From positions 1-35,553 of the forward strand of contig NZ_JALZ01000028.1 of assembly GCF_000521785.1 (NCBI RefSeq): a DNA stretch of 35,553 nucleotides. Direction: 5' to 3'. This document shows positions 23,022 to 35,553 of the stretch, in pieces. This DNA comes from Roseivivax halodurans JCM 10272. Lineage in GTDB: Bacteria; Pseudomonadota; Alphaproteobacteria; Rhodobacterales; Rhodobacteraceae. A program made the position numbers and the translations under genes. Under the pieces are notes generated by a model. It did no database searches. It was given only the letters and a program-made list of their open reading frames with translations, and was not told where the DNA came from. The number at the start of each line of letters is the position of its first letter. The stretch's first letter is position 1.

Positions 23022-24068
23022 ATGCAAAATCGCCGGATCAACCTTCCGCTGAACCCTCTTCGTTCCTTCGCGGTTGCGTCCCGTCACAAGACCTTCACAG
23101 CCGCCGCGAAGGAGCTTGGCGTGAGCCAAGTCGCCATCAGCCGGCAGATATCAATCCTCGAAGATTATCTGAATGTAAGCCTGTTCGAACGTGGCGTTCG
23201 GTCTGCAAAACTGACCGAGGTTGGGCGGGCTTTCGGGATTGAGGTTGCAGGTCTTTTCGACGAGTTGGAACGTGCCACGCAACGGATGATTAGCCACGAG
23301 ACGGAAAGCGCGGTTAATTTGCGCGTGCATCCGACGGTCGCTCATCACTGGTTGATGCCAAAGCTCATGGATTTTACCCGCCGGTATCCCGACATCCGTG
23401 TCCGGTTCGATACGCGGGTCGAGCCGCTCGATTTTCGCGGCACGCATCTTGATGTGGCGCTGCAGCTTGGCAATGGGGACTGGCGCGACACACGAACCCG
23501 CATGCTGTGGGAGGAGCATGTCGATGTGGTGTGCTGCCGATCGTATCTCGAATCGATAGGCGGACTTGAGAAGCCCGAGGATGTGACCAAGGGAGAGCTG
23601 CTGCATTCACGCTATCGGCGACGTGCGTGGGAATTTTGGGCGCGCTCTCTTGAATTGGATATCGATTTCCATCGGGGCATGGATTTCGAGACTTCGCTGC
23701 TCAGTTATTCGGCAGCGCAGCAAGGGTTCGGTCTGGCCATCGGACAACTCGGGCTTCTGGACGACCTGATCGCCGAGGGCCATCTTGTCCGGCCGCTTGG
23801 CATGGGCATCCCCACCGGCGCCGCGTTTTACGTAATCTGGCCCACGACAGTTTCGGTCAGTGTGAAGACGAAACGTTTCATTGACTGGCTGCTGGACCAA
23901 GTTGGCCAACCGCGTGAATTCTTTAAGTCCGTCCCCCCCCCCAAACAGAACCTGAATTTGTCAGACCGTCGCTTTGCCGAGCCTGATCTCTACTTAGGTC
24001 AATGTTCGAACTCTGATGTTATGCTGACATCAGTTTTGGGAGGGAATGCGTCATCATGGCGAGATTGA
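23022..24068 (+). CDS. LysR-family transcriptional regulator (GcvA-like), second copy
   Basis: LysR regulator of 348 residues. The HTH lies at about residues 24-45 (TFTAAAKELGVSQVAISRQI). The effector domain from about 95 has HPTVAHHWLMPKLMDFTRRY, RTHLDVALQL-like spacing, and the GcvA-branch ending around KTKRFIDWLLDQ (near residue 293). It is about 40 residues longer than most relatives, because the frame passes a ten-C run at 23933-23942 (residue 304) and continues until it overlaps the next gene start by 13 bases. Loss of one C would stop the protein about seven codons later at a normal length. The tail may be non-native, variable or a sequencing artefact. Divergent from the AbrB-family gene. 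Confidence 0.9.
   Translation: MQNRRINLPLNPLRSFAVASRHKTFTAAAKELGVSQVAISRQISILEDYLNVSLFERGVRSAKLTEVGRAFGIEVAGLFDELERATQRMISHETESAVNLRVHPTVAHHWLMPKLMDFTRRYPDIRVRFDTRVEPLDFRGTHLDVALQLGNGDWRDTRTRMLWEEHVDVVCCRSYLESIGGLEKPEDVTKGELLHSRYRRRAWEFWARSLELDIDFHRGMDFETSLLSYSAAQQGFGLAIGQLGLLDDLIAEGHLVRPLGMGIPTGAAFYVIWPTTVSVSVKTKRFIDWLLDQVGQPREFFKSVPPPKQNLNLSDRRFAEPDLYLGQCSNSDVMLTSVLGGNASSWRD
23933..23942 (+). repeat. Ten-C homopolymer near the end of LysR gene 2
   Basis: An uninterrupted C10 run lies inside the coding frame. With nine C the frame terminates within about seven codons; with eleven it terminates after about 18. With ten it reads on for about 44 codons into the SDR start. Such tracts are prone to slippage in replication and to miscounting in sequencing. 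Confidence 0.9.
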
Positions 24069-24844
24069 GCGGAAAGGTCGCAATCATCACGGGAGCGGGG
24101 CAACAGCCTGGCGCGACACCGGGCAATGGTCGCGCTACGGCACTCCGCTTTGCCGAGGAAGGTGCAATCTGCCTCTTGGTCGACATCAACCGCGACTGGG
24201 CAGAGGAAACCCGCGACATGATCGGCGGCGGCGACTCGATGGTCGTGACGGCCGACGTGACTGAAGAGGCATCCTGCCGGGACATTGTTCGGCAGGCGCT
24301 GGACCGGTTCGGTCGGATCGACGTGCTGCACAACAACGTCGGACTGTCCAAGGGCGATCGCGCAACTCCAGACCTCGGGGCGGATATTTGGGACCGTATC
24401 ATGACGCTGAACCTCAAAAGCATGTTCATGCTGTGCAAGGCGGCGTTGCCCTCGATGCGCGAGCGTCGGTCAGGATCCATCATTACGATCTCCTCGACAT
24501 CGTCTTTGTCGATGCGGCCGACTGTCGCCTACAAGACGTCGAAAGGCGCGATCAACACTTTCACGCAGCATGTGGCCGCGGAGAACGCGGCCTTCGGCGT
24601 GCGCGCCAACGTGATCCTGCCCGGCCTGATCAACACACCGATGGCGATCGAGCGGCGTGCGGAAGAATCTGGCCGTTCGCGTAACGAGATCCGCGCGGAA
24701 CGCGACGCCTTGGTGCCGATGGGCAAGATGGGCGAGGCTCGCGACGTGGCCAATGCCGCAGTCTTCCTCGCATCGGACGAGGCGAAGTACATCACCGGCG
24801 CGCTTCTGCCGGTCGATGGCGGCCTGCTGTTGAAGCGGGGGTAG
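24056..24844 (+). CDS. Short-chain dehydrogenase/reductase (SDR), second copy
   Basis: This 262-residue classical SDR has NNVG at 93-96, Ser at 146/147 and Y159/K163, so it is catalytically complete. The cofactor loop is elongated and reads TGAGQQPGATPGNGRATALR. It shares the P-G-N/W-G-N-G-R-A form with the SDR at 7353, and both have the following RFAEEGA, so the pair look like diverged paralogues. LVD at the second strand end suggests NAD(H). GGGAGGG lies upstream. The start overlaps the LysR tail. It probably belongs to the same transcript as the MmgE/PrpD and crotonase genes. Confidence 0.92.
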   Translation: MARLSGKVAIITGAGQQPGATPGNGRATALRFAEEGAICLLVDINRDWAEETRDMIGGGDSMVVTADVTEEASCRDIVRQALDRFGRIDVLHNNVGLSKGDRATPDLGADIWDRIMTLNLKSMFMLCKAALPSMRERRSGSIITISSTSSLSMRPTVAYKTSKGAINTFTQHVAAENAAFGVRANVILPGLINTPMAIERRAEESGRSRNEIRAERDALVPMGKMGEARDVANAAVFLASDEAKYITGALLPVDGGLLLKRG

Positions 24845-24850
24845 CACATT

Positions 24851-26215
24851 TTGAATAATCCTTTGATGAATCTGGCGTGTGCTGCGGAACGATGGCGGTC
24901 CCGGCCATTGACCGATGCCGTTGCTCATGATGCCCGTCGCGCAGTCCTTGATTGGTTCGGCGCGCTTCTGCCGGGTTGCGTCGAAGGTCCGTCGGTTGCT
25001 CTGTCGCGTGCCTTGGTCGGTGCGCGGGGGGAAGGCAGCGCGGTGACCTATGTGGACGGAGCCTCGGGATCGCCGCGCCACGCGGCATTGCTGAACGGTA
25101 CAGCAAGCCATACGATCGAGTTCGACGACATCTTTCGCGACGGCGGATACCATCCCGGCAGCCCGACGATTTCCGCGGCACTTGCGGTCGCGCAGGCCGA
25201 AGGCTCCAGTGTCGAGGCATTTCATCGCGCTGTGATCGGTGGGTACGAGGTGGGCTGCCGGATCGCCATCGCTCTGCAACCGAGCCATTACCGTAACTGG
25301 CACATTACCGCTACCGTGGGCACCATGGGCGCCGCCGTTTCCACCGCGATGCTCAAGGGCTGCAGCGCCGAAGGGATCGCCCACGCTATTGCCATTGCCA
25401 GTAGCTTTGCCGGCGGGCACCAGGAAAACCTGCAAGGGCAGGGGCAGACCAAGCCCATGCATTGCGGCCACGCCGCCGAGGCCGGTGTGTTGGCCGGGCT
25501 GGCGGCCGCCGAAGGCGTGACCGGGTCTCCGGGCAGCCTCGACGCGCCGCATGGCTATGCGGCCGCCACGAGCGACGGCACGGGCAACTGGCAGGCCGGG
25601 CTGGAGGGGCTGAACGAATGGACGTCGATCTCGCGGATGACGTTCAAGAATTACGGCTGCTGCGGCCATATCTTCCCGGCCCTCGACGGGATCAATGCCA
25701 TGCGCGTCGAACACGGATTCGACCCCGGCGACATCGCCGAGGTCGAGATTCACGGCTATGGCCCCACCGTTTCCATCTGCGACCGGATGGACGTGCAATC
25801 GGCCCGCGATGCCCGATTCAGCTTGCAATATTGCGCCGCCGCTCTGCTTCACACCGGGGCAGTGCGGATGGCGGCCTTCAGCCCAGAGACGCTTGGCCGG
25901 GACGACATACGCGCGTTCATGGACAGGGTGATTGTTACCGAGGATGCCACGATCGCCGCCGCCTATCCGGCGAGACGTCAGGCTCGACTTGTCATCACGC
26001 TAAATTCGGGTGTGGTGATCGAGCATTTTCAGCCGACGCGGAAGGGCGATCCCGACGATCCCCTTACGGACGCCGAACTTTTCGAGAAATACGATGAGCT
26101 GACGGCCGGCGTGCTCGATGCTGGAGCTGCAGAACGCCTCCGCGACGTCATCATGACTGGCGACGAGCTTCCCGGCCTGGTCTTGATAAAGACCCGCCAA
26201 CTTTCCGCTGCATGA
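24851..26215 (+). CDS. MmgE/PrpD family protein
   Basis: 454 residues, the family length. The helical N-terminal domain contains ARRAVLDWFGALLPG near 27, LLNGTASHTIEFDDIF near 78, and HPGSPTISAALAVAQAEG near 100. It also has FKNYGCCGHIFPALDG near 265, at the start of the smaller C-terminal domain. Characterised relatives include 2-methylcitrate dehydratase and cis-aconitate decarboxylase, so dehydration, decarboxylation or isomerisation of a branched di- or tricarboxylate is plausible. The TTG start at 24851 has a GGGGG nine bases upstream; the ATG five codons later lacks a site. The start is uncertain. Confidence 0.88.
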   Translation: MNNPLMNLACAAERWRSRPLTDAVAHDARRAVLDWFGALLPGCVEGPSVALSRALVGARGEGSAVTYVDGASGSPRHAALLNGTASHTIEFDDIFRDGGYHPGSPTISAALAVAQAEGSSVEAFHRAVIGGYEVGCRIAIALQPSHYRNWHITATVGTMGAAVSTAMLKGCSAEGIAHAIAIASSFAGGHQENLQGQGQTKPMHCGHAAEAGVLAGLAAAEGVTGSPGSLDAPHGYAAATSDGTGNWQAGLEGLNEWTSISRMTFKNYGCCGHIFPALDGINAMRVEHGFDPGDIAEVEIHGYGPTVSICDRMDVQSARDARFSLQYCAAALLHTGAVRMAAFSPETLGRDDIRAFMDRVIVTEDATIAAAYPARRQARLVITLNSGVVIEHFQPTRKGDPDDPLTDAELFEKYDELTAGVLDAGAAERLRDVIMTGDELPGLVLIKTRQLSAA

Positions 26216-26243
26216 CCACGACAAGTTAAGGATTGGGACGACC

Positions 26244-27059
26244 ATGAAGGATATTTCGGCAACGGCTCCCACTGCGGAGTTCATCGACGTTGAAATGCAG
26301 GGCAGGTCGGCAATCATCCGTCTCAACCGGCCCGAACTTCGCAACGCCATGAACGATCAGATGCGGCAGGAGTTGATCGCCGCCTTCGAATGGGCGGACA
26401 GGAGCCCGGAGGTGCGCGCGGTGGTTTTGACCGGTGCAGGAAAGGGGTTTTGCTCAGGGGGCGATATCGGGGGCATGCGGGAACGGCTCAACGTGCCGCA
26501 AGGCGACGTGGCCTACAACGGCTGGAACCGTCAGAAACAGACGCACCGCGGCGTTGCCGCGATCCACGGCTGTACCAAGCCGGTCATCGCAGCCGTCAAT
26601 GGGGCAGCCTTCGGACTGGGCCTCGACATGGCGATGGCCTGCGATTTCGTCGTGGCCGTGGATGGCGCCAAACTCTCGATGAGTTTCCTCAAGCGCGGGC
26701 TCGTGTCCGACGGCGGGGGCATGTATTTTCTGCCGCGCCGCGTCGGTCTGTCTCGTGCGAAGGAGCTGATCCTATCGAGCCGCGTGGTGCTTGCGGATGA
26801 AGCGCTGTCGATCGGTCTTGTCGATCGCGTCACGTCAGCTGACGACCTGATCAATACTTGCATGGCTTGGGCAGAAGAACTGACGCAGGGGTCGCCCGCG
26901 GCCGTGGCTCTGACTAAGTCCATACTCGACAAGACGTTCGAGAGCTCGGACGATGAGGTCTTTGCCCTTGGTCGCCAAGCCCAGGCGATTTGCTACACGA
27001 CGAAAGAGCATCGCGAGTCGATCGAAGAATTCTTGAACAAGGCGGACAGCAAGGCATAG
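26244..27059 (+). CDS. Enoyl-CoA hydratase/isomerase (crotonase) family, PaaG-like
   Basis: 271-residue crotonase. The oxyanion-hole strand is GKGFCSGGDIGGM (66-78), and the second is VNGAAFGLGLDMAMACD (118-134). The two glutamates of classical enoyl-CoA hydratase are not kept: Asp128 replaces the first, and the second position is occupied by a hydrophobic residue in LSMSFLKRG. Instead the loop GLVSDGGG supplies Asp156, the arrangement seen in PaaG-type ring isomerases and delta-3,2-enoyl-CoA isomerases. Isomerisation or another proton transfer is therefore more likely than plain hydration. AAGGA lies upstream of ATG 26244. It is the last gene of the catabolic region. Confidence 0.9.
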   Translation: MKDISATAPTAEFIDVEMQGRSAIIRLNRPELRNAMNDQMRQELIAAFEWADRSPEVRAVVLTGAGKGFCSGGDIGGMRERLNVPQGDVAYNGWNRQKQTHRGVAAIHGCTKPVIAAVNGAAFGLGLDMAMACDFVVAVDGAKLSMSFLKRGLVSDGGGMYFLPRRVGLSRAKELILSSRVVLADEALSIGLVDRVTSADDLINTCMAWAEELTQGSPAAVALTKSILDKTFESSDDEVFALGRQAQAICYTTKEHRESIEEFLNKADSKA

Positions 27060-28229: not shown

Positions 28230-28664
28230 GTGCTCGTATGGGACAGAAGGTGCCAGCGGGATGTGGTCCGGTCGGGCAAGGATGCCTACGAAGTCGAGCA
28301 TATCTGGGCCAATCACTACGAACGCTTCGAGGCATTTTTCCCGCAGCGGTCCGAGTTTGACAGCACTCGCAACTAAATCGGCGGACTCATCCTGCTACCC
28401 CAGAAGATCAATGCCAGTCTGAGCGACATGACATACGCCCAGAAACGACCGCACTACCTCAAGCAGAACCCCCTGGCGCAGTCGCTGCACGAGGACTTCT
28501 ACCGCAATAATCCCGGGGCTCGGCGTGCAATCAAGGACACCGGTCTGCCGTTCGCGTCAGTGGAGGAGTTCATGCCAGAGGACCTTCGCAAGCGATCGAA
28601 GCTTTATTGCCAACTGGCGGATCATATTTGGTCGCCGTCGCGCCTATCGGCGAATACCTGCTAA
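28230..28664 (+). pseudogene. C-terminal relic of a DUF262/DUF1524 (GmrSD-like) restriction protein
   Basis: One frame reads VVRSGKDAYEVEHIWANHYE, a stop (TAA at 28374-28376), then IGGLILLPQKINASLSDMTY and NPLAQSLHEDFYRNNPGARR through LADHIWSPSRL to the stop at 28664. This is the HNH/DUF1524-type C-terminal region of DUF262 proteins, where E-x-E-H-I-W carries the nuclease His and where intact members read an uninterrupted R-N-R-I-G-G-L. The TAA therefore appears to be a nonsense mutation inside the domain. The N-terminal DUF262 (ParB-like NTPase) half is missing upstream. GmrSD-type systems cleave modified phage DNA. This copy is dead unless read through. Confidence 0.75.
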
Positions 28665-28911: not shown

Positions 28912-31900
28912 TTACTCAGCGATGAGCCGCCATTCGGGGATGACGGTAAACCATTGATCGAGGAAGATCTTACCGTGCTGATCTTCGTCGCTGTCGGTCT
29001 TGCGCCAAGAAACGAGGGCAAACACCTCGGCATAGAACTCCTCTCCAGCCACACCCGGCGAGAAGCCTCTCTGCATCTTGCCGATCTGATGCAGCCCATT
29101 CTCGATCGGCGCAAAGACATGCCAAGGGTTTTGATCCCGCTGGTTCTCCGTTCTCTTGATCATGATGCGATCTCCGGGCTTCAGCCCGGAGATGACGGCC
29201 TTGGTTTTTTGCCGGCCCCTCTCGTCGGAATAGCACCACGGCCCATTCCAAGCCGGGAAAGACAGAAAGACATCTCGGACTGAGCAGGGGATCAGTGGGG
29301 CCTTGGCTTGAGATTTCAGTGAAGTTCGGCGCGGCTCAAGATCCAGCGGCGCGAGATGCTCAGACCTCTGAGCTGAGATCAACCGTCTCGTCGGCGCCAT
29401 GAAGCCCCCGGTTGTCAGGCTCAGGCTGTATCGGGCCCGGGTGGCAGCAACATAGAAGAGCCGTCGATCTGCGCCAGTAATCGACAAGCTGTGAAGCCAG
29501 TCGCAATCGCAAACGACGACATTGTCGAACTCGAGGCCCTTGGAGCTGTGCGCGGTGAGCACCATCACGCCGTTCTGCTCGGGCCGCCAGCCATGCGCCC
29601 ATTCGACGAACTCCTCGAGCGTCAGGCGCGGCGAGATCTCCACCGGCTGATCCTCAGCGGCCTCGCTTGTCTCGGAACTACCCTTGGGGTCTTCATCGGC
29701 CGCATCCATCTGGTCGCGCAGGTAGTCCCTCAGCCATTGTGCCACGGCACGCGCCCAGAGGCTTCCGTAATGCCCTTCCAGCCACCCGGCGACCCGCTCG
29801 ATGTCCTCCGGCAGGAGCACTTGGCCGACGCGTTCCTTCTTCTCCAGCCACTCCCTGACCCGGACCGCTTCCTTCACGCGTGCCATGGGCACGAGCCCCT
29901 GGAGATCGCGCGAGACTTCGATCCCGGCACCCAGCAGCGCGCGCTCGACCACCGGGATATGCGCGCGTCGGCGCACCAGCACGGCGGTGGATGCCCAGCG
30001 CCATCTCTCCTTGCCTACCGCTGCGCGCAGGCGGAGCAGCTCGACTGTCGCGAGGGCCGCGTGGCTTTCGATGGTTCGATCGGCATTCCCAAGGATCGTA
30101 ACCCGTCCGAGGTCGGGATCGCGCGGTCGGTGATAGCGGCCTTGCAGTGGATCATGGACCCGGTCTGGATCGATTTCGATCTCCCGGGTCTTCAGGCGAT
30201 CGGAGCAATGGGAGATAATCTCAGCGGCACAGCGCAAGATGGCTCCGCTCGAGCGGTAGTTCCATGTCAGCTCGGGCATCTTTTTTGGCGTGTTGAACAG
30301 CCGATCGAAGGCGCGGATATGCTGCCCGCTGGCGCCGCCGAAGTCATAGATGTTCTGGTCATCGTCTCCGACCGCGATGAAGCGGACATCGACGAGATCG
30401 GCCGCACTGCGCGCTTCACTCGCGGCCTTCTTCTGGCTCTGCTGCGAGATCTCCTTGATCAGCGCGAAGGAGTCCTCGGTCACGTCCTGAAACTCGTCGA
30501 CGAAGACCCAGCGGAAGCGCCGCAGGATGAGGTCCGAGAGATTGCCGCCGTCATCGCGTTGCTGGGTCAGCCGCGCGCTGGCTTGCGACAGTATGCGATT
30601 GAAGGCACTGGCCTTGCGCCCGTTATCGGCCTCGGTGTCGGTGAGTTCGACTTCTTCGCCGACCGCCTCATCCGAGAGCTCGGCGAAGGACTGGCCGAGC
30701 ACCTGCAAGGCAAAGGAGTGATAGGTGTAGACCGAGACGACCGCGCCGCGTCGGCCCAGCGCCGACTTTGCGCGCAGGCGCGAGCGGATCTCTTCCGCGG
30801 CACGTCGGTTGTAGCACAAAGCCAGGATCTGGTCTGGCGGCACGCGCTCGACGCCGACGAGCCAGACGATGCGTTCCACCAGCACCCGCGTCTTGCCGGC
30901 GCCCGGGCCGGCCAGGACCAGCAGATCTTTCAGGCTTGTGTCGTCATGCACGATTTTAGATTGCTCAGGGTCGAGCCTGCTGCGTAGCTCGATCTGCCGC
31001 TGGACCGGGGCAGGGCGGTTTTCACGAACCACCTTCAACTCTTCGCTCTCGAAGAAGGTCGCGAGGCTCTCCTTGGATGGTGTCGCGAAGTAGGATTTGA
31101 GAAGCTCGGGCCCTTCATCCGGCGCCTCGAGCACCCGCCGGGCATAGCCGTCCATGAGGTGCAGCTGGCGGATCTCTTCCTCTTGGAAGGCCTCAACCCC
31201 GGTGCGGAACATATCCTGAGTGTAGGAGCGGACGGTCAGGTTGGTATCGCGCCGTGCGATCTCGACGCGGACGGCCTCGCTCTTGGTGTAGAGTCCGGCT
31301 GAGATGTCGAGCGCCTTGATCCGTGTCAGTAGCCGCAGGTGGCGTCGCACGAGACGCTCTGATGCGCCCGCCGCGAGCCCGGAGCCGTCCGGAGCGCGCC
31401 AAGTCCCTTCGACATCCATGTCGAAACTTGTCACCTCTTCAGCGAGGCGATCCGTTTCGATACGCAGGTGGCGCTCGTCGTCAGCGAGATTTTCGAGCAC
31501 TTCGAACACGCGGGCGGTCTGTGCACGGTGCTGTTTGAGCCGAGCCCGAAGGTCGTCAGGCTCGAGCTCGGGTGCGAAGATCGTGAGCTGCTTCGTCAGA
31601 TTGGCCGGAGCCACCTTGACGCCGATGAGTTTCAGCCGACGCAGTTCCTCGAGAAGCTGAAGAGCCTCTTTGGCGGTAAGGCGCACACCGTCCTCAAGCT
31701 CATTCTGAGCTTTCTGAAGAAGCGACGCGAGCGTGATCTGGAATGGCCGCGGCGCCTGCTTGGCGGGTTTCTCGTCTTCCTCGACCTCTTGGGTGTCGTC
31801 GAAGGTATCCTCCTCCGCCGCGGCCCGGGCTTCGAACAGGGCGATGATGACTTCGACCACTGCGTTGCTCTTCTCCGCCCAGGTCGAGACGAGGCGCGGC

Positions 31901-34455
31901 GCAATCCGTGCGCCGCCCAGCTTGATGTCGACGCTTGTATCGGCGTGCAGGAGATCGCGATGCTTTCGCAGGGCGGTTACGGCTTTGCGCACGATCTTCA
32001 GTCGGCCGGTCTTTCGCAGGCCGCAGATATCCGCGAGCTCTTCGAGATCGTCGGGGAGCTGGGGCTCCTCGCCTCTGGCGGCCTGCGAGAAGAGATGCTG
32101 GACGATCCGGGTCTGGATACGGGTGAGGCCCTTGGGATCGCGCTGTAGCGCCTCCAGAACCTGCCTTTTGACCCGGAGATGGGGAAATCCGGATTGGGCC
32201 CCCACCTTGCGAATGAGGCCATGGGCCTCGAGTTCATCGACGATGCGATCGACCCGTGATCTTTGTAGCTCCTCGGCGCGCTCGTAGGTCGAGTCCTTCA
32301 GAAACCCCAGCACATCTTCAGCGACCACTTGGTAGGGCAGTGAGATCGATGGGAAGCGGTTGGCCTTGCGCTGCACGCGGCGTTGGATGTCGAGCACATA
32401 GGCCAGAACAGCATCGATGTCTTCCTTATGGAGATGCCCCTGGGCGCAAAGACCAAGGCGGCGGTCATGCTCCTCGGTGTCGTGCAGGAGAATGCAGTTA
32501 GCTGGCTTCTTGTCGCGCCCCGCGCGCCCTGCTTCCTGGGCATAGGTCTCGAGAGAAGCAGAGGGTCCGGTATGGAGAACCAGCCGCACCCGCGGGCAGT
32601 CGACCCCCATGCCGAAAGCAATGGTTGAGACAATGACCTGTAGGCGCCCCTCGGCGAAGTCGCGTTCGACTCGCGCCTTGTCCTCCGGGCTGCGGTCGGC
32701 GTGGTAGAACTCTACGCTGTGGCCGAGGGCGTCGAGACTGGACGCGATCTGCTGAGTGTCTTTTCGGCTGTAGGTATAGATGATTGCCTGGCCACCTTCG
32801 GGCAACAGCTCCGGATCGCGAAGCATGGCGCTCAGCTGCTCGTGCGTTTCGCCATCACGGGGTAGCACGCGGTAGGTGAGGTTGGGACGTTCGGCCCCAC
32901 CGTCGATCACCGCGAGCGACCGGCCCATGCCGGTCTTGAAGGCTTTCTGTATGTCTTTCTGGGTCTCTGGCCGGGCGGTGGCGGTCAGGCACAGGATGGC
33001 GGCCTTGTCGCTGCCACGGGCGCCGCACTCGGCGAGCCACTTTGGCGCGCGCCGATAGTCGCCGCGAAAGCCATTGCCCCAAGCTGGAATGCAATGCGCC
33101 TCGTCGAAGACCCACATGCCGATGCGCCGACTCTCGAGCGCTGAGCGTGTCGATTTGGAGCCGAGGCTTTCCGGTGCGAGGTAGAGCAGGGCGATGCGCC
33201 CCTCGCGGATGTCCGAGAGGATCTCATCGCGGTTTACGACATCAAGATCGCTGTGCAGCCGCGCGACGCCCGGCAGACCTTCCTCTTCTGCCTTGGCGGC
33301 TTGGTCCTCCATCAGCGCCTTTAGAGGCGAAACCACCACGGTGAGATCGCCAGTGCGCTCATGGTGCTCGAGGGCGGTCACTTGGAAGCAGCGCGACTTG
33401 CCGGTGCCGGTAGGGAGAATACCCAGCGCGGAGCGCCGGGCCAGGGCTGCGTCCATCACGCGCTGTTGGTAGGCGATGCCCTTCTCGTCGAAGGGCGGCT
33501 GAAAGCGCGGGGTCTCTCCCTCGGCCGGCGGAAACCACCGGTTCATGCTGTGAAGCGATGTCTCGTGATCTTGGCAGCGGCGGCAGCTGGGTTGGCTACA
33601 TCGCCGCCTGCCCAGATCATCCAGCGCCTCCTGGAAACCCAGCTCCCCCTTCATCAACCACTCGGCCGGCGCCGGACGCTGGTCGCGATGGCGCACCCAG
33701 CTCAGGACCCAGGCCAGTGGCCAGCCGTTCTTCGTCTCAAAGGCGTGGAGAAGCTGGCCGTGCAGCCCGCGTATGCAGACCTCGCCCTGGAACATCCGGA
33801 CGATCGTGTCGATGATCGGCTTGGCCCCCTCCAGATTATCACCTGAAGGAGTAGAAGCTCGCCCCAAGACGGCATCGAAGAAGGCTGCGTAGCCATTGTG
33901 GCTTGCGCCGAGCCCGCACAGCCACCGCAGGACCTTGATCCACTCGCGATCCATCGTCTCGAAAGCCAAGACCTCGGAACGAAGGAGGGCGATGGTCTCC
34001 AGTGTGTCCTGAACGGGATCTGCCAAGCCGGTCTGGGCAAGGTAGGGCTTGTTCAGCGCATGCGACTTGAGGGCGGGAAAGGCGAGAGGGCTGAGCCAGA
34101 TCGTATCGACGAGCTGAAGGTCATCGAATGACCTCCCTGTCAGCGCTTCGAGCTCAGGGAGATCGTGGATTGCTGCATTGTGGCCGATCGCGAAGCGATG
34201 ACGGCGCAGCTCGACCTCGATTTTCGTGGCCGGCAGTCCGCGCTTGTTAGAGGCCACCTCCGGCTCAGTGCTGGCAGGAAATGCGGCGGCATCACGAAGG
34301 CGAGCCAGACCCTTGGCGTCATCGATGATTTCGAGATCGAAGCCAACCGAGGCAGAAAGCAAGTCGTCGATAGATCGAATTGGCGGCGCCCATGTGGCGG
34401 CGCCACCTTTCTTACTGACTTCTTGAACGCCGTCGCGGAACAAACGCTTTAGCAA
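28912..34455 (-). CDS. Giant RecQ-UvrD double helicase with DEDD-exonuclease-like N-terminus
   Basis: About 1,847 residues from a TTG at 34455, chosen because GGAGG lies six bases upstream. The frame runs 60 codons further up with no domain. Order: (1) DEDD-exonuclease-like, D40/E42 in FDLE, D98 in GHNAAIHD, VDTIWLSPLAF near 116, H132 and D150. (2) Cys/His cluster C286, C291, C294, H297. (3) RecQ-type SF2 helicase: PTGTGKS near 348, DEAHCIPAWGNGFRGDYRR from 451, LTATA 490, IAFGMGVD near 612, QEAGRAGRD 640; winged-helix-like region about 710-830. (4) Charged linker about 880-905 and helical region. (5) UvrD-type SF1 helicase: AGPGAGKT 1182, VFVDEFQDV 1317, GDDDQNIYDFGGA near 1363, WNYRS 1398, TAHSSKGLEF near 1634, YVAATRAR 1668. 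(6) A tail (about 1755-1820) resembling HIRAN. All helicase motifs look intact. Likely acts on DNA in repair or phage defence. Confidence 0.93.
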   Translation of the reverse strand: MLKRLFRDGVQEVSKKGGAATWAPPIRSIDDLLSASVGFDLEIIDDAKGLARLRDAAAFPASTEPEVASNKRGLPATKIEVELRRHRFAIGHNAAIHDLPELEALTGRSFDDLQLVDTIWLSPLAFPALKSHALNKPYLAQTGLADPVQDTLETIALLRSEVLAFETMDREWIKVLRWLCGLGASHNGYAAFFDAVLGRASTPSGDNLEGAKPIIDTIVRMFQGEVCIRGLHGQLLHAFETKNGWPLAWVLSWVRHRDQRPAPAEWLMKGELGFQEALDDLGRRRCSQPSCRRCQDHETSLHSMNRWFPPAEGETPRFQPPFDEKGIAYQQRVMDAALARRSALGILPTGTGKSRCFQVTALEHHERTGDLTVVVSPLKALMEDQAAKAEEEGLPGVARLHSDLDVVNRDEILSDIREGRIALLYLAPESLGSKSTRSALESRRIGMWVFDEAHCIPAWGNGFRGDYRRAPKWLAECGARGSDKAAILCLTATARPETQKDIQKAFKTGMGRSLAVIDGGAERPNLTYRVLPRDGETHEQLSAMLRDPELLPEGGQAIIYTYSRKDTQQIASSLDALGHSVEFYHADRSPEDKARVERDFAEGRLQVIVSTIAFGMGVDCPRVRLVLHTGPSASLETYAQEAGRAGRDKKPANCILLHDTEEHDRRLGLCAQGHLHKEDIDAVLAYVLDIQRRVQRKANRFPSISLPYQVVAEDVLGFLKDSTYERAEELQRSRVDRIVDELEAHGLIRKVGAQSGFPHLRVKRQVLEALQRDPKGLTRIQTRIVQHLFSQAARGEEPQLPDDLEELADICGLRKTGRLKIVRKAVTALRKHRDLLHADTSVDIKLGGARIAPRLVSTWAEKSNAVVEVIIALFEARAAAEEDTFDDTQEVEEDEKPAKQAPRPFQITLASLLQKAQNELEDGVRLTAKEALQLLEELRRLKLIGVKVAPANLTKQLTIFAPELEPDDLRARLKQHRAQTARVFEVLENLADDERHLRIETDRLAEEVTSFDMDVEGTWRAPDGSGLAAGASERLVRRHLRLLTRIKALDISAGLYTKSEAVRVEIARRDTNLTVRSYTQDMFRTGVEAFQEEEIRQLHLMDGYARRVLEAPDEGPELLKSYFATPSKESLATFFESEELKVVRENRPAPVQRQIELRSRLDPEQSKIVHDDTSLKDLLVLAGPGAGKTRVLVERIVWLVGVERVPPDQILALCYNRRAAEEIRSRLRAKSALGRRGAVVSVYTYHSFALQVLGQSFAELSDEAVGEEVELTDTEADNGRKASAFNRILSQASARLTQQRDDGGNLSDLILRRFRWVFVDEFQDVTEDSFALIKEISQQSQKKAASEARSAADLVDVRFIAVGDDDQNIYDFGGASGQHIRAFDRLFNTPKKMPELTWNYRSSGAILRCAAEIISHCSDRLKTREIEIDPDRVHDPLQGRYHRPRDPDLGRVTILGNADRTIESHAALATVELLRLRAAVGKERWRWASTAVLVRRRAHIPVVERALLGAGIEVSRDLQGLVPMARVKEAVRVREWLEKKERVGQVLLPEDIERVAGWLEGHYGSLWARAVAQWLRDYLRDQMDAADEDPKGSSETSEAAEDQPVEISPRLTLEEFVEWAHGWRPEQNGVMVLTAHSSKGLEFDNVVVCDCDWLHSLSITGADRRLFYVAATRARYSLSLTTGGFMAPTRRLISAQRSEHLAPLDLEPRRTSLKSQAKAPLIPCSVRDVFLSFPAWNGPWCYSDERGRQKTKAVISGLKPGDRIMIKRTENQRDQNPWHVFAPIENGLHQIGKMQRGFSPGVAGEEFYAEVFALVSWRKTDSDEDQHGKIFLDQWFTVIPEWRLIAE

Positions 34456-34778
34456 ATGATACCTCCGGGGCGGGAGGAGACAGAAACTCCATTGCGAAAT
34501 CAATCGAAAAGGTGTTTGCGACCAAACATTGCCAAGTCCCTGAGGAGGAGATGAAAGCACATAACAGCCTGCCGAAGAAGAGCGGACTCGGACGGCAGTC
34601 ATGCAAGCCCGTGCGATCGAGGAGCGCAAGGCCATGGATCAGATAATCGCAAGCTTCTTTACGGAAGGCGGGACGCGTCCGGTGCAGTTGAACCACGAGG
34701 GCTTTGATGCTGTAACCGCCCCCCGACGGCATCGACGTGCCATGGTGGGATCGCAACAATCCATTTTGGGAGGCGGTC
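34456..34778. other. Spacer between the helicase gene and the IS110 transposase
   Basis: It holds the helicase promoter side and the presumed left end of the insertion sequence. On the plus strand, ATG 34551 is preceded by GAGGAGG but the frame closes after 31 codons (34646). A second frame from ATG 34601 starts with a charged helix-like stretch (MQARAIEERKAMDQIIASFF) and then turns into sequence antisense or upstream to the transposase. It could be the 5' end of a gene cut by the element. I cannot place the exact insertion-sequence end. For IS110-group elements this 5' noncoding stretch may include the bridge RNA. Confidence 0.4.
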
Positions 34779-35553
34779 ATGTCGGAGATTACCACGGTCG
34801 GATTGGATCTCGCGAAGAATGTGTTCCAGGTCCACGGTGCTGACGCCAGAGGCGGCGTGGTCTTTCGCAAGAAGCTCAGAAGGTCCGCGGTGCTGGAGTT
34901 CTTCAGTAAGCTGCCGCCCTGCCTGGTGGCGATGGAGGCCTGCGGCGGCGCCCATTTCTGGGGGCGGGAGCTGGCACGGCTCGGCCATGACATCAGGCTC
35001 ATCCCGCCCGCCTACGTGAAGCCGTTCGTCAAGCGGCAAAAGAACGATGCGGCTGACGCGGAGGCGATCTGCGAAGCTGCGCAGAGACCGAACATGCGCT
35101 TCGTGCCCGTGAAGAGCGAAGAAACGCAGGGGGCGGCCAGCGTCTTCCGCGTCCGGGAATTGCTCATCCGGCAGCGCACCCAGGCCATCAACGCGCTCCG
35201 CGGTCACCTCACCGAATACGGTCAGGTCGTGCCGCAGGGCGCGACGAATGCCCGGCGCCTGATTGCGTTGGTCGCGGACGACGAGTCGGATCTGCCAGCG
35301 ACGGCACGGGCTTCCCTGCAGGTCCTGACCGCAACGCTCGCCCAGCTCGACGATCAAATCGCGATCTTGGATGCCGAGATCACCCGCCGAGCCAAGGAGA
35401 ACGAAGTGGCGCGGCGTCTGATGACCATTCCGGGCGTCGGTCCACTGATCGCCACGGCCATCGCCACGTTGGCGCCGCCGCCGGAAACGTTCCGCAAGGC
35501 TCGAGACTTCGCGGCATGGCTTGGCCTCACACCGCGGCAGCATTCGACAGGCG
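34779..35553 (+). CDS. IS110-family transposase, cut by the window edge
   Basis: 258 codons are visible, open to the last base. The N-terminal DEDD (RuvC-like) domain shows VGLDLAKNVFQVHG with the first Asp, VAMEACGGAHFWGREL with the Glu, and KRQKNDAADAEAICEA with the paired Asp residues. The C-terminal transposase-20 domain has begun: IPGVGPLIATAIATLAP and FAAWLGLTPRQHSTG, with the active-site Ser of IS110 recombinases expected just about here. GGGAGG lies five bases before the ATG. No frameshift is seen, so the element may be functional. It lies beyond the helicase gene, in divergent orientation. Confidence 0.93.
   Translation, partial: MSEITTVGLDLAKNVFQVHGADARGGVVFRKKLRRSAVLEFFSKLPPCLVAMEACGGAHFWGRELARLGHDIRLIPPAYVKPFVKRQKNDAADAEAICEAAQRPNMRFVPVKSEETQGAASVFRVRELLIRQRTQAINALRGHLTEYGQVVPQGATNARRLIALVADDESDLPATARASLQVLTATLAQLDDQIAILDAEITRRAKENEVARRLMTIPGVGPLIATAIATLAPPPETFRKARDFAAWLGLTPRQHSTG

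What the first reader, a model, noticed from the sequence alone, without database searches (positions are those of the whole stretch)
28912..34455. Single protein fusing an exonuclease-like domain, a RecQ helicase and a UvrD helicase
Two complete ATP-dependent 3'-5'-type helicase engines from different superfamilies (SF2 RecQ and SF1 UvrD), each with intact Walker A, Walker B and arginine-finger motifs, lie in one chain behind a DEDD-like nuclease. Individually these are repair enzymes. In one polypeptide they resemble a self-contained end-processing machine in the spirit of RecBCD or AddAB, but built from other parts. It sits next to a dead GmrSD-like restriction gene and insertion sequences, the usual setting of phage-defence genes. 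I do not recall a named defence system of this architecture.
Basis: partly seen in the sequence, partly recalled or inferred. Interest (0 to 1): 0.82.

Follow-up and report, generated by a model that had tools for sequence, protein, structure and literature searches.

The report
Exonuclease–RecQ–UvrD defence-island fusion protein
One very large bacterial protein joins a DNA-trimming enzyme and two DNA-unwinding motors; relatives in many bacteria keep the same layout and often sit beside known anti-phage genes, so it is probably an unnamed single-gene defence or DNA-end processing system.

Summary
The fusion is real. One frame (28912-34455, minus strand, TTG start behind GGAGG, 1847 aa) holds a DEDD-type exonuclease, a CxxxxCxxC cluster, a RecQ core, a poorly modelled middle, a UvrD-type helicase and a beta-rich tail. 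It is not a one-off: an N-terminal scan of one-genome-per-species contigs found 570 related stretches, and 88 of 105 candidate ORFs carry exonuclease, RecQ and UvrD in one frame. In 91 long homologues the exonuclease acids and both helicases' Walker and arginine residues are almost invariant. Annotated plasmid copies are called RecQ helicases. The gene is sporadic and has no conserved neighbours but often lies beside defence genes: type I, III and IV restriction, DISARM, Zorya, Lamassu (control). PADLOC's best 25 of 85 matches hold no full-length model; ten paper searches listed nothing on it. Best reading: an unnamed single-gene anti-invader enzyme that unwinds DNA from 3' ends, gaps or forks and trims 3' strands, closer to WRN-plus-UvrD than to RecBCD. 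Function is inferred; nothing was assayed.

The parts
28912..34455 (-). whole gene, TTG start, 1847 aa, exonuclease-RecQ-UvrD fusion
34462..34466 (-). GGAGG ribosome-binding site, six bases before the TTG
   Evidence: read
33946..34401 (-). DEDD-type exonuclease domain (about residues 19-170)
   Evidence: profile matches to DinG and T7 DNA polymerase exonucleases; model
34330..34344 (-). ExoI motif GFDLE (D and E in 90 of 91 homologues, one gap)
34162..34185 (-). ExoII motif GHNxxxHD (N and D in 90 of 91, one gap)
34006..34023 (-). ExoIII motif ADPVQD; the final D is conserved, the first residue is A here and N in 90 of 91 homologues
33574..33600 (-). CxxxxCxxC cluster, a possible metal site, in 88-89 of 91
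32464..33471 (-). RecQ helicase core (DEAD plus Helicase_C)
31006..32388 (-). middle region, mostly helical, perhaps winged-helix; low model confidence
   Evidence: weak
29401..30981 (-). UvrD-type SF1 helicase
28915..29283 (-). small beta-rich C-terminal domain of unknown family
28377..28631 (+). possible remnant of a GmrSD-type gene (weak match), after an in-frame stop at 28374-28376
34779..35552 (+). IS110-family transposase, cut by the contig end; the repeated element begins near 34696-34705, leaving about 240 bases of other DNA before the start codon

Best explanation
This is a member of a widespread, mobile, unnamed family of single-gene anti-invader enzymes. Shown: one chain with a DEDD 3'-5'-exonuclease-type domain, a RecQ helicase and a UvrD helicase; catalytic residues conserved; gene sporadic, without a conserved partner gene and often beside defence genes. 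Inferred: the enzyme loads where foreign DNA shows a 3' end, gap or fork (phage replication and recombination intermediates, or incoming plasmid strands). Both motors should run 3'-5' on single strands, so they open the duplex while the exonuclease, coupled to the RecQ motor as in WRN, eats the 3' strand. Removing 3' ends would block recombination-dependent replication, circularisation or plasmid establishment. Self-protection probably comes from host proteins covering host ends, not from a partner gene.
For: Architecture: 88 of 105 candidate ORFs (the window gene counts twice, as window and L001; 3 of the other 17 are cut by a contig end, 14 are pieces of frames that stop inside the gene). 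Residue conservation in 91 homologues. Sporadic: 0 of 8 other genomes of the genus, 6 of 101 relatives including itself, 15 of 398 genomes of the phylum, itself included and one cut short. The genome has separate RecQ-like and UvrD-like ORFs. Neighbours not conserved: 29 of 2451 pairs under 85% identity share one. By my simple gene caller 0 of 69 upstream and 2 of 64 downstream neighbours lie on the same strand within 100 bp. Defence neighbours: 13 of 19 hand-picked, mostly large adjacent proteins match PADLOC at 1e-20 or better, one only as a generic subtilase (6 of 9; 7 of 10); 141 PADLOC families hit by 128 adjacent proteins, 63 by 131 proteins more than 5.5 kb upstream, 2 by 131 proteins from 20 arbitrary stretches of the window's genome; Fisher p 0.003 taking 13 of 128 as a lower bound against at most 2 of 131. 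Plasmid copies: type I restriction next door but one in Allochromatium, type I-D CRISPR genes a few kb away in Thiothrix.
Against: No phage assay. 6 of the 19 adjacent proteins had no PADLOC match at 1e-20; a 1021-aa cellulase-annotated neighbour in Thiothrix was not among the 19; Bacteroides, Microvirga and Calothrix plasmid copies show no named defence gene. The control is one genome, the loci are the closest 80 of 570 plus plasmids, and related loci are not independent. In the window itself defence context is weak. My gene caller misses short genes: annotated records show a same-strand small gene 101 bp upstream in Cereibacter and genes within 100 bp on both sides in Scytonema, so a small partner is not excluded. 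The window's copy is divergent (31% to its nearest homologue, end branch 2.08) and has A for N in ExoIII, so its exonuclease could be weakened. Plasmid carriage also fits plasmid maintenance.
Confidence: 0.55

Rival explanations
1. An accessory DNA repair or replication-fork helper carried by plasmids and islands: a WRN-like exonuclease-helicase with a UvrD motor that clears or remodels forks; its presence in defence islands is hitch-hiking.
For: All recognised parts are repair-enzyme families; present on many large replicons and near plasmid partition or replication genes, for example in Aliarcobacter and Bacteroides.
Against: Sporadic, absent from 8 of 8 congeners; no conserved neighbours; more defence genes nearby than in the control.
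Confidence: 0.25
2. A helicase toxin or abortive-infection effector, like PsyrT of PsyrTA, that attacks host DNA when triggered.
For: The RecQ part matches the PADLOC PsyrT model (2.5e-69), but only as a RecQ helicase.
Against: No conserved partner gene and few close same-strand neighbours, though my caller misses short genes.
Confidence: 0.1
3. A defence-island gene directed mainly against plasmids and conjugation rather than phages.
For: Conjugating DNA enters as a single strand (recalled); copies occur on large replicons.
Against: Nothing found here separates the two targets.
Confidence: 0.1

Closest known systems
WRN (Werner syndrome protein)
   Same: exonuclease and RecQ helicase in one chain (PDB name 'bifunctional 3'-5' exonuclease/ATP-dependent helicase WRN'); its RecQ core is among the relatives
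   Different: no UvrD half; exonuclease of DEDDy type (recalled); eukaryotic genome maintenance (recalled)
Gabija (GajA-GajB)
   Same: UvrD-type helicase in a nuclease-helicase defence system linked to DNA ends (passages of PMC12407980 and PMC10952713); the UvrD part matches GajB structures
   Different: GajB is a separate gene with an OLD-type nuclease partner (recalled); no RecQ and no DEDD exonuclease (recalled)
RecBCD / AddAB / AdnAB
   Same: helicase-nuclease machines; the UvrD part aligns with RecB, AddA and AdnB
   Different: no PD-(D/E)xK nuclease seen here; one chain; one motor is RecQ
DpdF of the Dpd system
   Same: PADLOC DpdF models match the RecQ core
   Different: match limited to the helicase core; Dpd partner genes were not looked for
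DinG-type exonuclease-helicase (PDB 8zef; organism not shown by the tool)
   Same: DEDD exonuclease fused to a DNA helicase; best PDB match of the N-terminal profile
   Different: helicase is XPD-like (abstract start of PMC12525004), no RecQ or UvrD
Distant exonuclease/RecQ/UvrD proteins in Deinococcus and Hymenobacter, and a RecQ/UvrD protein near a cold-shock-domain gene in Rhodobacter CZR27
   Same: RecQ-type and UvrD-type engines together
   Different: Hymenobacter spreads it over two overlapping genes with a long extra N-terminus; CZR27 has no detectable exonuclease; a link to TOTE conflict systems is only a lead

Membership tests
RecQ helicase family | RecQ_fam model above curated cut-off | tested here: met
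   TIGR00614 255 bits, cut-off 219.8
RecQ helicase family | equivalog of housekeeping RecQ | tested here: not met
   TIGR01389 261.7 bits, cut-off 640.2; a separate RecQ-like ORF in the same genome
UvrD/Rep family | UvrD N- and C-terminal helicase domains with Walker A/B | tested here: met
DEDD exonuclease superfamily | four acidic residues in ExoI, ExoII, ExoIII | tested here: met
   D, E, D, D in the window and in 90 of 91 homologues, one gap; profile matches; Pfam found nothing
DEDDh subgroup | histidine five residues before the last acid (recalled) | tested here: not met
   A in the window, N in 90 of 91 homologues
RecBCD / AddAB | PD-(D/E)xK nuclease domain | tested here: not met
   12 Pfam families at E up to 1, none of that kind; weakly folded middle and tail could hide a divergent one
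RecBCD / AddAB | Chi-regulated degradation from blunt ends | not testable with these tools
   needs purified protein
Gabija | gajA-type nuclease gene beside the helicase gene | tested here: not met
   no gene called between 27059 and 28912, IS110 and contig end on the other side; no partner conserved among 74 loci
HIRAN domain | Pfam or structural match in the C-terminal domain | tested here: inconclusive
   no match in the window, one Cereibacter tail or nine other homologue tails nor by PDB profile
PADLOC defence systems (2023) | full-length model | tested here: not met
   partial RecQ-core or UvrD-part matches only, best 25 of 85 seen
Anti-phage defence system | protects cells from phage | not testable with these tools
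   needs plaque assays

The most novel reading that the evidence does not exclude
A single-protein immune machine with three DNA engines that senses unprotected 3' ends or forks and erases 3' strands, so that invaders cannot use recombination-dependent replication or circularise: a bacterial WRN-UvrD hybrid, unnamed although found in at least Pseudomonadota, Bacteroidota, Cyanobacteriota and Campylobacterota.
Probability: 0.3. Interest if true: 0.82.

Novelty: new variant of a known kind. Interest (0 to 1): 0.62.

Why it matters
If it is a defence enzyme, a widespread class of one-gene immunity is hidden under the annotation 'RecQ helicase' and lacks a model in a 2023 defence-gene library. It would show how two helicases of different superfamilies are coupled in one chain to a 3'-exonuclease, and offers a simple test bed: one gene, three catalytic sites, no known partner.

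Tried and rejected
HIRAN in the tail: not found by Pfam or PDB profile. Pfam for the exonuclease: nothing, so that assignment rests on PDB profiles, motifs and the model. Origin in phages: with the Cereibacter copy (L015) as query, 108 phage records match and none covers 80% of it. Viral contigs: 15 loci with the L027 query, 11 of them spanning at least 1300 of 1705 residues, one with the window query; IMG/VR contigs may be proviruses, and I did not read their neighbours. Housekeeping locus: rejected. The PDB fold lists of the N-half show RecQ only and say nothing about the exonuclease. The middle region has no convincing relative. Cold-shock relatives as TOTE systems: a lead only (E 0.01; nothing); the TOTE paper was not read, only mentions in PMC12458937. 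PMC3194920, on defence islands, is not held. Rows dropped or chosen: three proteins of about 1950 aa out of 131 adjacent ones were left out to fit the size limit; 131 of 155 far proteins and 131 of 146 control proteins were used; the 19 proteins scanned singly were picked by hand, mainly for size, and are not the 19 largest; the 91 homologues were required to have ORFs of 1400 aa or more and E up to 1e-200, and a few rows are identical (92 rows with the window, 89 different); six plasmid rows were dropped from the structure alignments. The C-half model is weak (mean pLDDT 67.6).

Full report
Observation. The minus-strand frame 28912-34635 is open. Homology starts after a TTG at 34455 preceded by GGAGG, so the protein is most likely 1847 aa. 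An open run of that length has a chance of about 2e-24 at the window's composition. The window is a whole contig of a draft genome of 4.49 Mb. Pfam and NCBIfam find a RecQ core and a UvrD helicase.

Exonuclease. Pfam misses it. A seven-sequence profile of the N-terminal region matches DinG at 2e-7, and a 40-sequence profile of the domain alone matches the T7 DNA polymerase exonuclease at 0.0009 and DinG at 0.0036. The AlphaFold model of residues 19-700 has mean pLDDT 84.6 and pTM 0.83; its N-terminal order of strands and helices fits a DEDD exonuclease (my reading; the fold searches did not test that part). Four acids are present in the window and in 90 of 91 homologues, with one gap. The residue five before the last acid, histidine in DEDDh enzymes (recalled), is N in 90 of 91 and A in the window. 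A CxxxxCxxC cluster between exonuclease and RecQ is present in 88-89 of 91.

Helicases and other parts. RecQ structures, bacterial and human, lead the fold list of the N-half; UvrD, PcrA and Rep, then AdnAB, AddAB and RecB, lead that of the C-half. The C-half model has mean pLDDT 67.6. The tail is beta-rich and conserved at few positions; HIRAN could not be shown.

Relatives. The best plasmid copies cover 71-82% of the protein at 29-34% identity in Cereibacter, Sulfitobacter, Rhizobium, Microvirga, Thiothrix, Calothrix and others, named as RecQ helicases where annotated (424 plasmid records match in all, most by a helicase part only). Copies in Aliarcobacter and Bacteroides align over the whole length at 23-25%. 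A scan of one genome per species with the N-terminal region gave 570 related stretches, of which the best 80 were kept, nearly all alphaproteobacterial. With segment profiles 88 of 105 candidate ORFs have exonuclease, RecQ and UvrD in one frame; of the other 17, three are cut by a contig end and 14 are pieces of frames that stop inside the gene, so some copies are decaying or carry sequencing errors. Some Rhodobacterales and Hyphomicrobiales copies intermix in a quick tree, in which the window's branch is long and its place unsure. More distant proteins in Deinococcus and Hymenobacter keep exonuclease, RecQ and UvrD; Rhodobacter CZR27 has RecQ and UvrD without a detectable exonuclease, two genes after a cold-shock-domain gene.

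Distribution and context. Absent from 8 of 8 congeners, present in 6 of 101 relatives including itself, 7 of 385 genomes of the class including itself and 15 of 398 of the phylum, itself included and one of them cut short (89 of 398 pass the E-value limit, the rest by an ordinary RecQ core). By my simple gene caller the gene has a same-strand neighbour within 100 bp in 0 of 69 loci upstream and 2 of 64 downstream. That caller misses short genes: annotated records show a small same-strand gene 101 bp upstream in Cereibacter and close genes on both sides in Scytonema. At helicase identity under 85% only 29 of 2451 locus pairs share any homologous neighbour, against 36 of 223 at 85-95% and 12 of 27 at 95% or more.

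Defence neighbours. Among 128 of 131 adjacent proteins 141 PADLOC families are hit at 1e-20; among 131 of 155 proteins more than 5.5 kb upstream 63; among 131 of 146 proteins from 20 arbitrary stretches of the window's own genome 2, one member each. Family counts are not protein counts, since one protein can hit many models. Looked at singly, 13 of 19 hand-picked, mostly large adjacent proteins match: type III, I and IV restriction enzymes, a type I methyltransferase, two ZorD, two DrmD-like, LmuA, an Orf5/HEC-06/SspE-like protein, two PADLOC candidates and one generic subtilase. These lie at 12 loci. In annotated plasmid records Allochromatium has type I restriction genes one gene away, Thiothrix type I-D CRISPR genes a few kb away but also a cellulase upstream, Scytonema a helicase and a phospholipase D that look DISARM-like to me, and four plasmids toxin-antitoxin type genes within the fetched flanks. 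Bacteroides, Microvirga and Calothrix show no named defence gene. Two of the plasmid regions fetched had no annotation.

Literature. I ran ten paper searches; no listed title or abstract start concerns this fusion, and one search listed only 15 of 247. I saw passages of PMC5512222, PMC12407980, PMC10952713 and PMC12458937. The Gabija preprint proposes that DNA without RecBCD activity marks foreign DNA, which is the model for self-protection that I borrow. Most subscription papers and current DefenseFinder models were not available.

Verdict. Fusion confirmed, defence likely but unproven, RecBCD analogy loose, WRN-plus-UvrD a better picture. Shown: anatomy, conservation, sporadic spread, neighbours. 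Inferred: polarity, substrate, 3'-strand removal, self-protection.

Noticed in passing
window 34696-35553: An IS110-family element runs off the contig end; similar stretches lie on several other contigs of the genome, which may explain the assembly break.
   Followed up: partly
window 23022-27059: LysR-type regulator, SDR dehydrogenase, MmgE/PrpD-like and enoyl-CoA hydratase-like ORFs, a catabolic-looking cluster, judged by eye from the translations.
   Followed up: no
L157:1326-9483: Hymenobacter swuensis plasmid: exonuclease, RecQ and UvrD parts spread over two overlapping genes, the RecQ core itself divided between them, with a long extra N-terminus.
   Followed up: partly
L159:5051-12452: Rhodobacter sp. 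CZR27 plasmid: RecQ-UvrD protein two genes after a cold-shock-domain protein, possibly a TOTE-like conflict system.
   Followed up: partly
L093:4008-9860, L103:4008-9860, L100:177-6029: A very large (about 1950 aa) related gene directly upstream of the fusion in three Rhodobacterales; left out of the neighbour scans for size, never identified.
   Followed up: no
L030:15128-18577, L062:15851-19804: Large neighbours (1149 and 1317 aa) without PADLOC matches at 1e-20; not searched further.
   Followed up: no
L160-L174: Predicted viral contigs; 11 of these 15 loci carry near full-length relatives, suggesting carriage on proviruses or similar elements.
   Followed up: no
L043, L046, L068, L081, L094: The fusion is split into two ORFs in these copies, by frame breaks or sequencing errors.
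   Followed up: no
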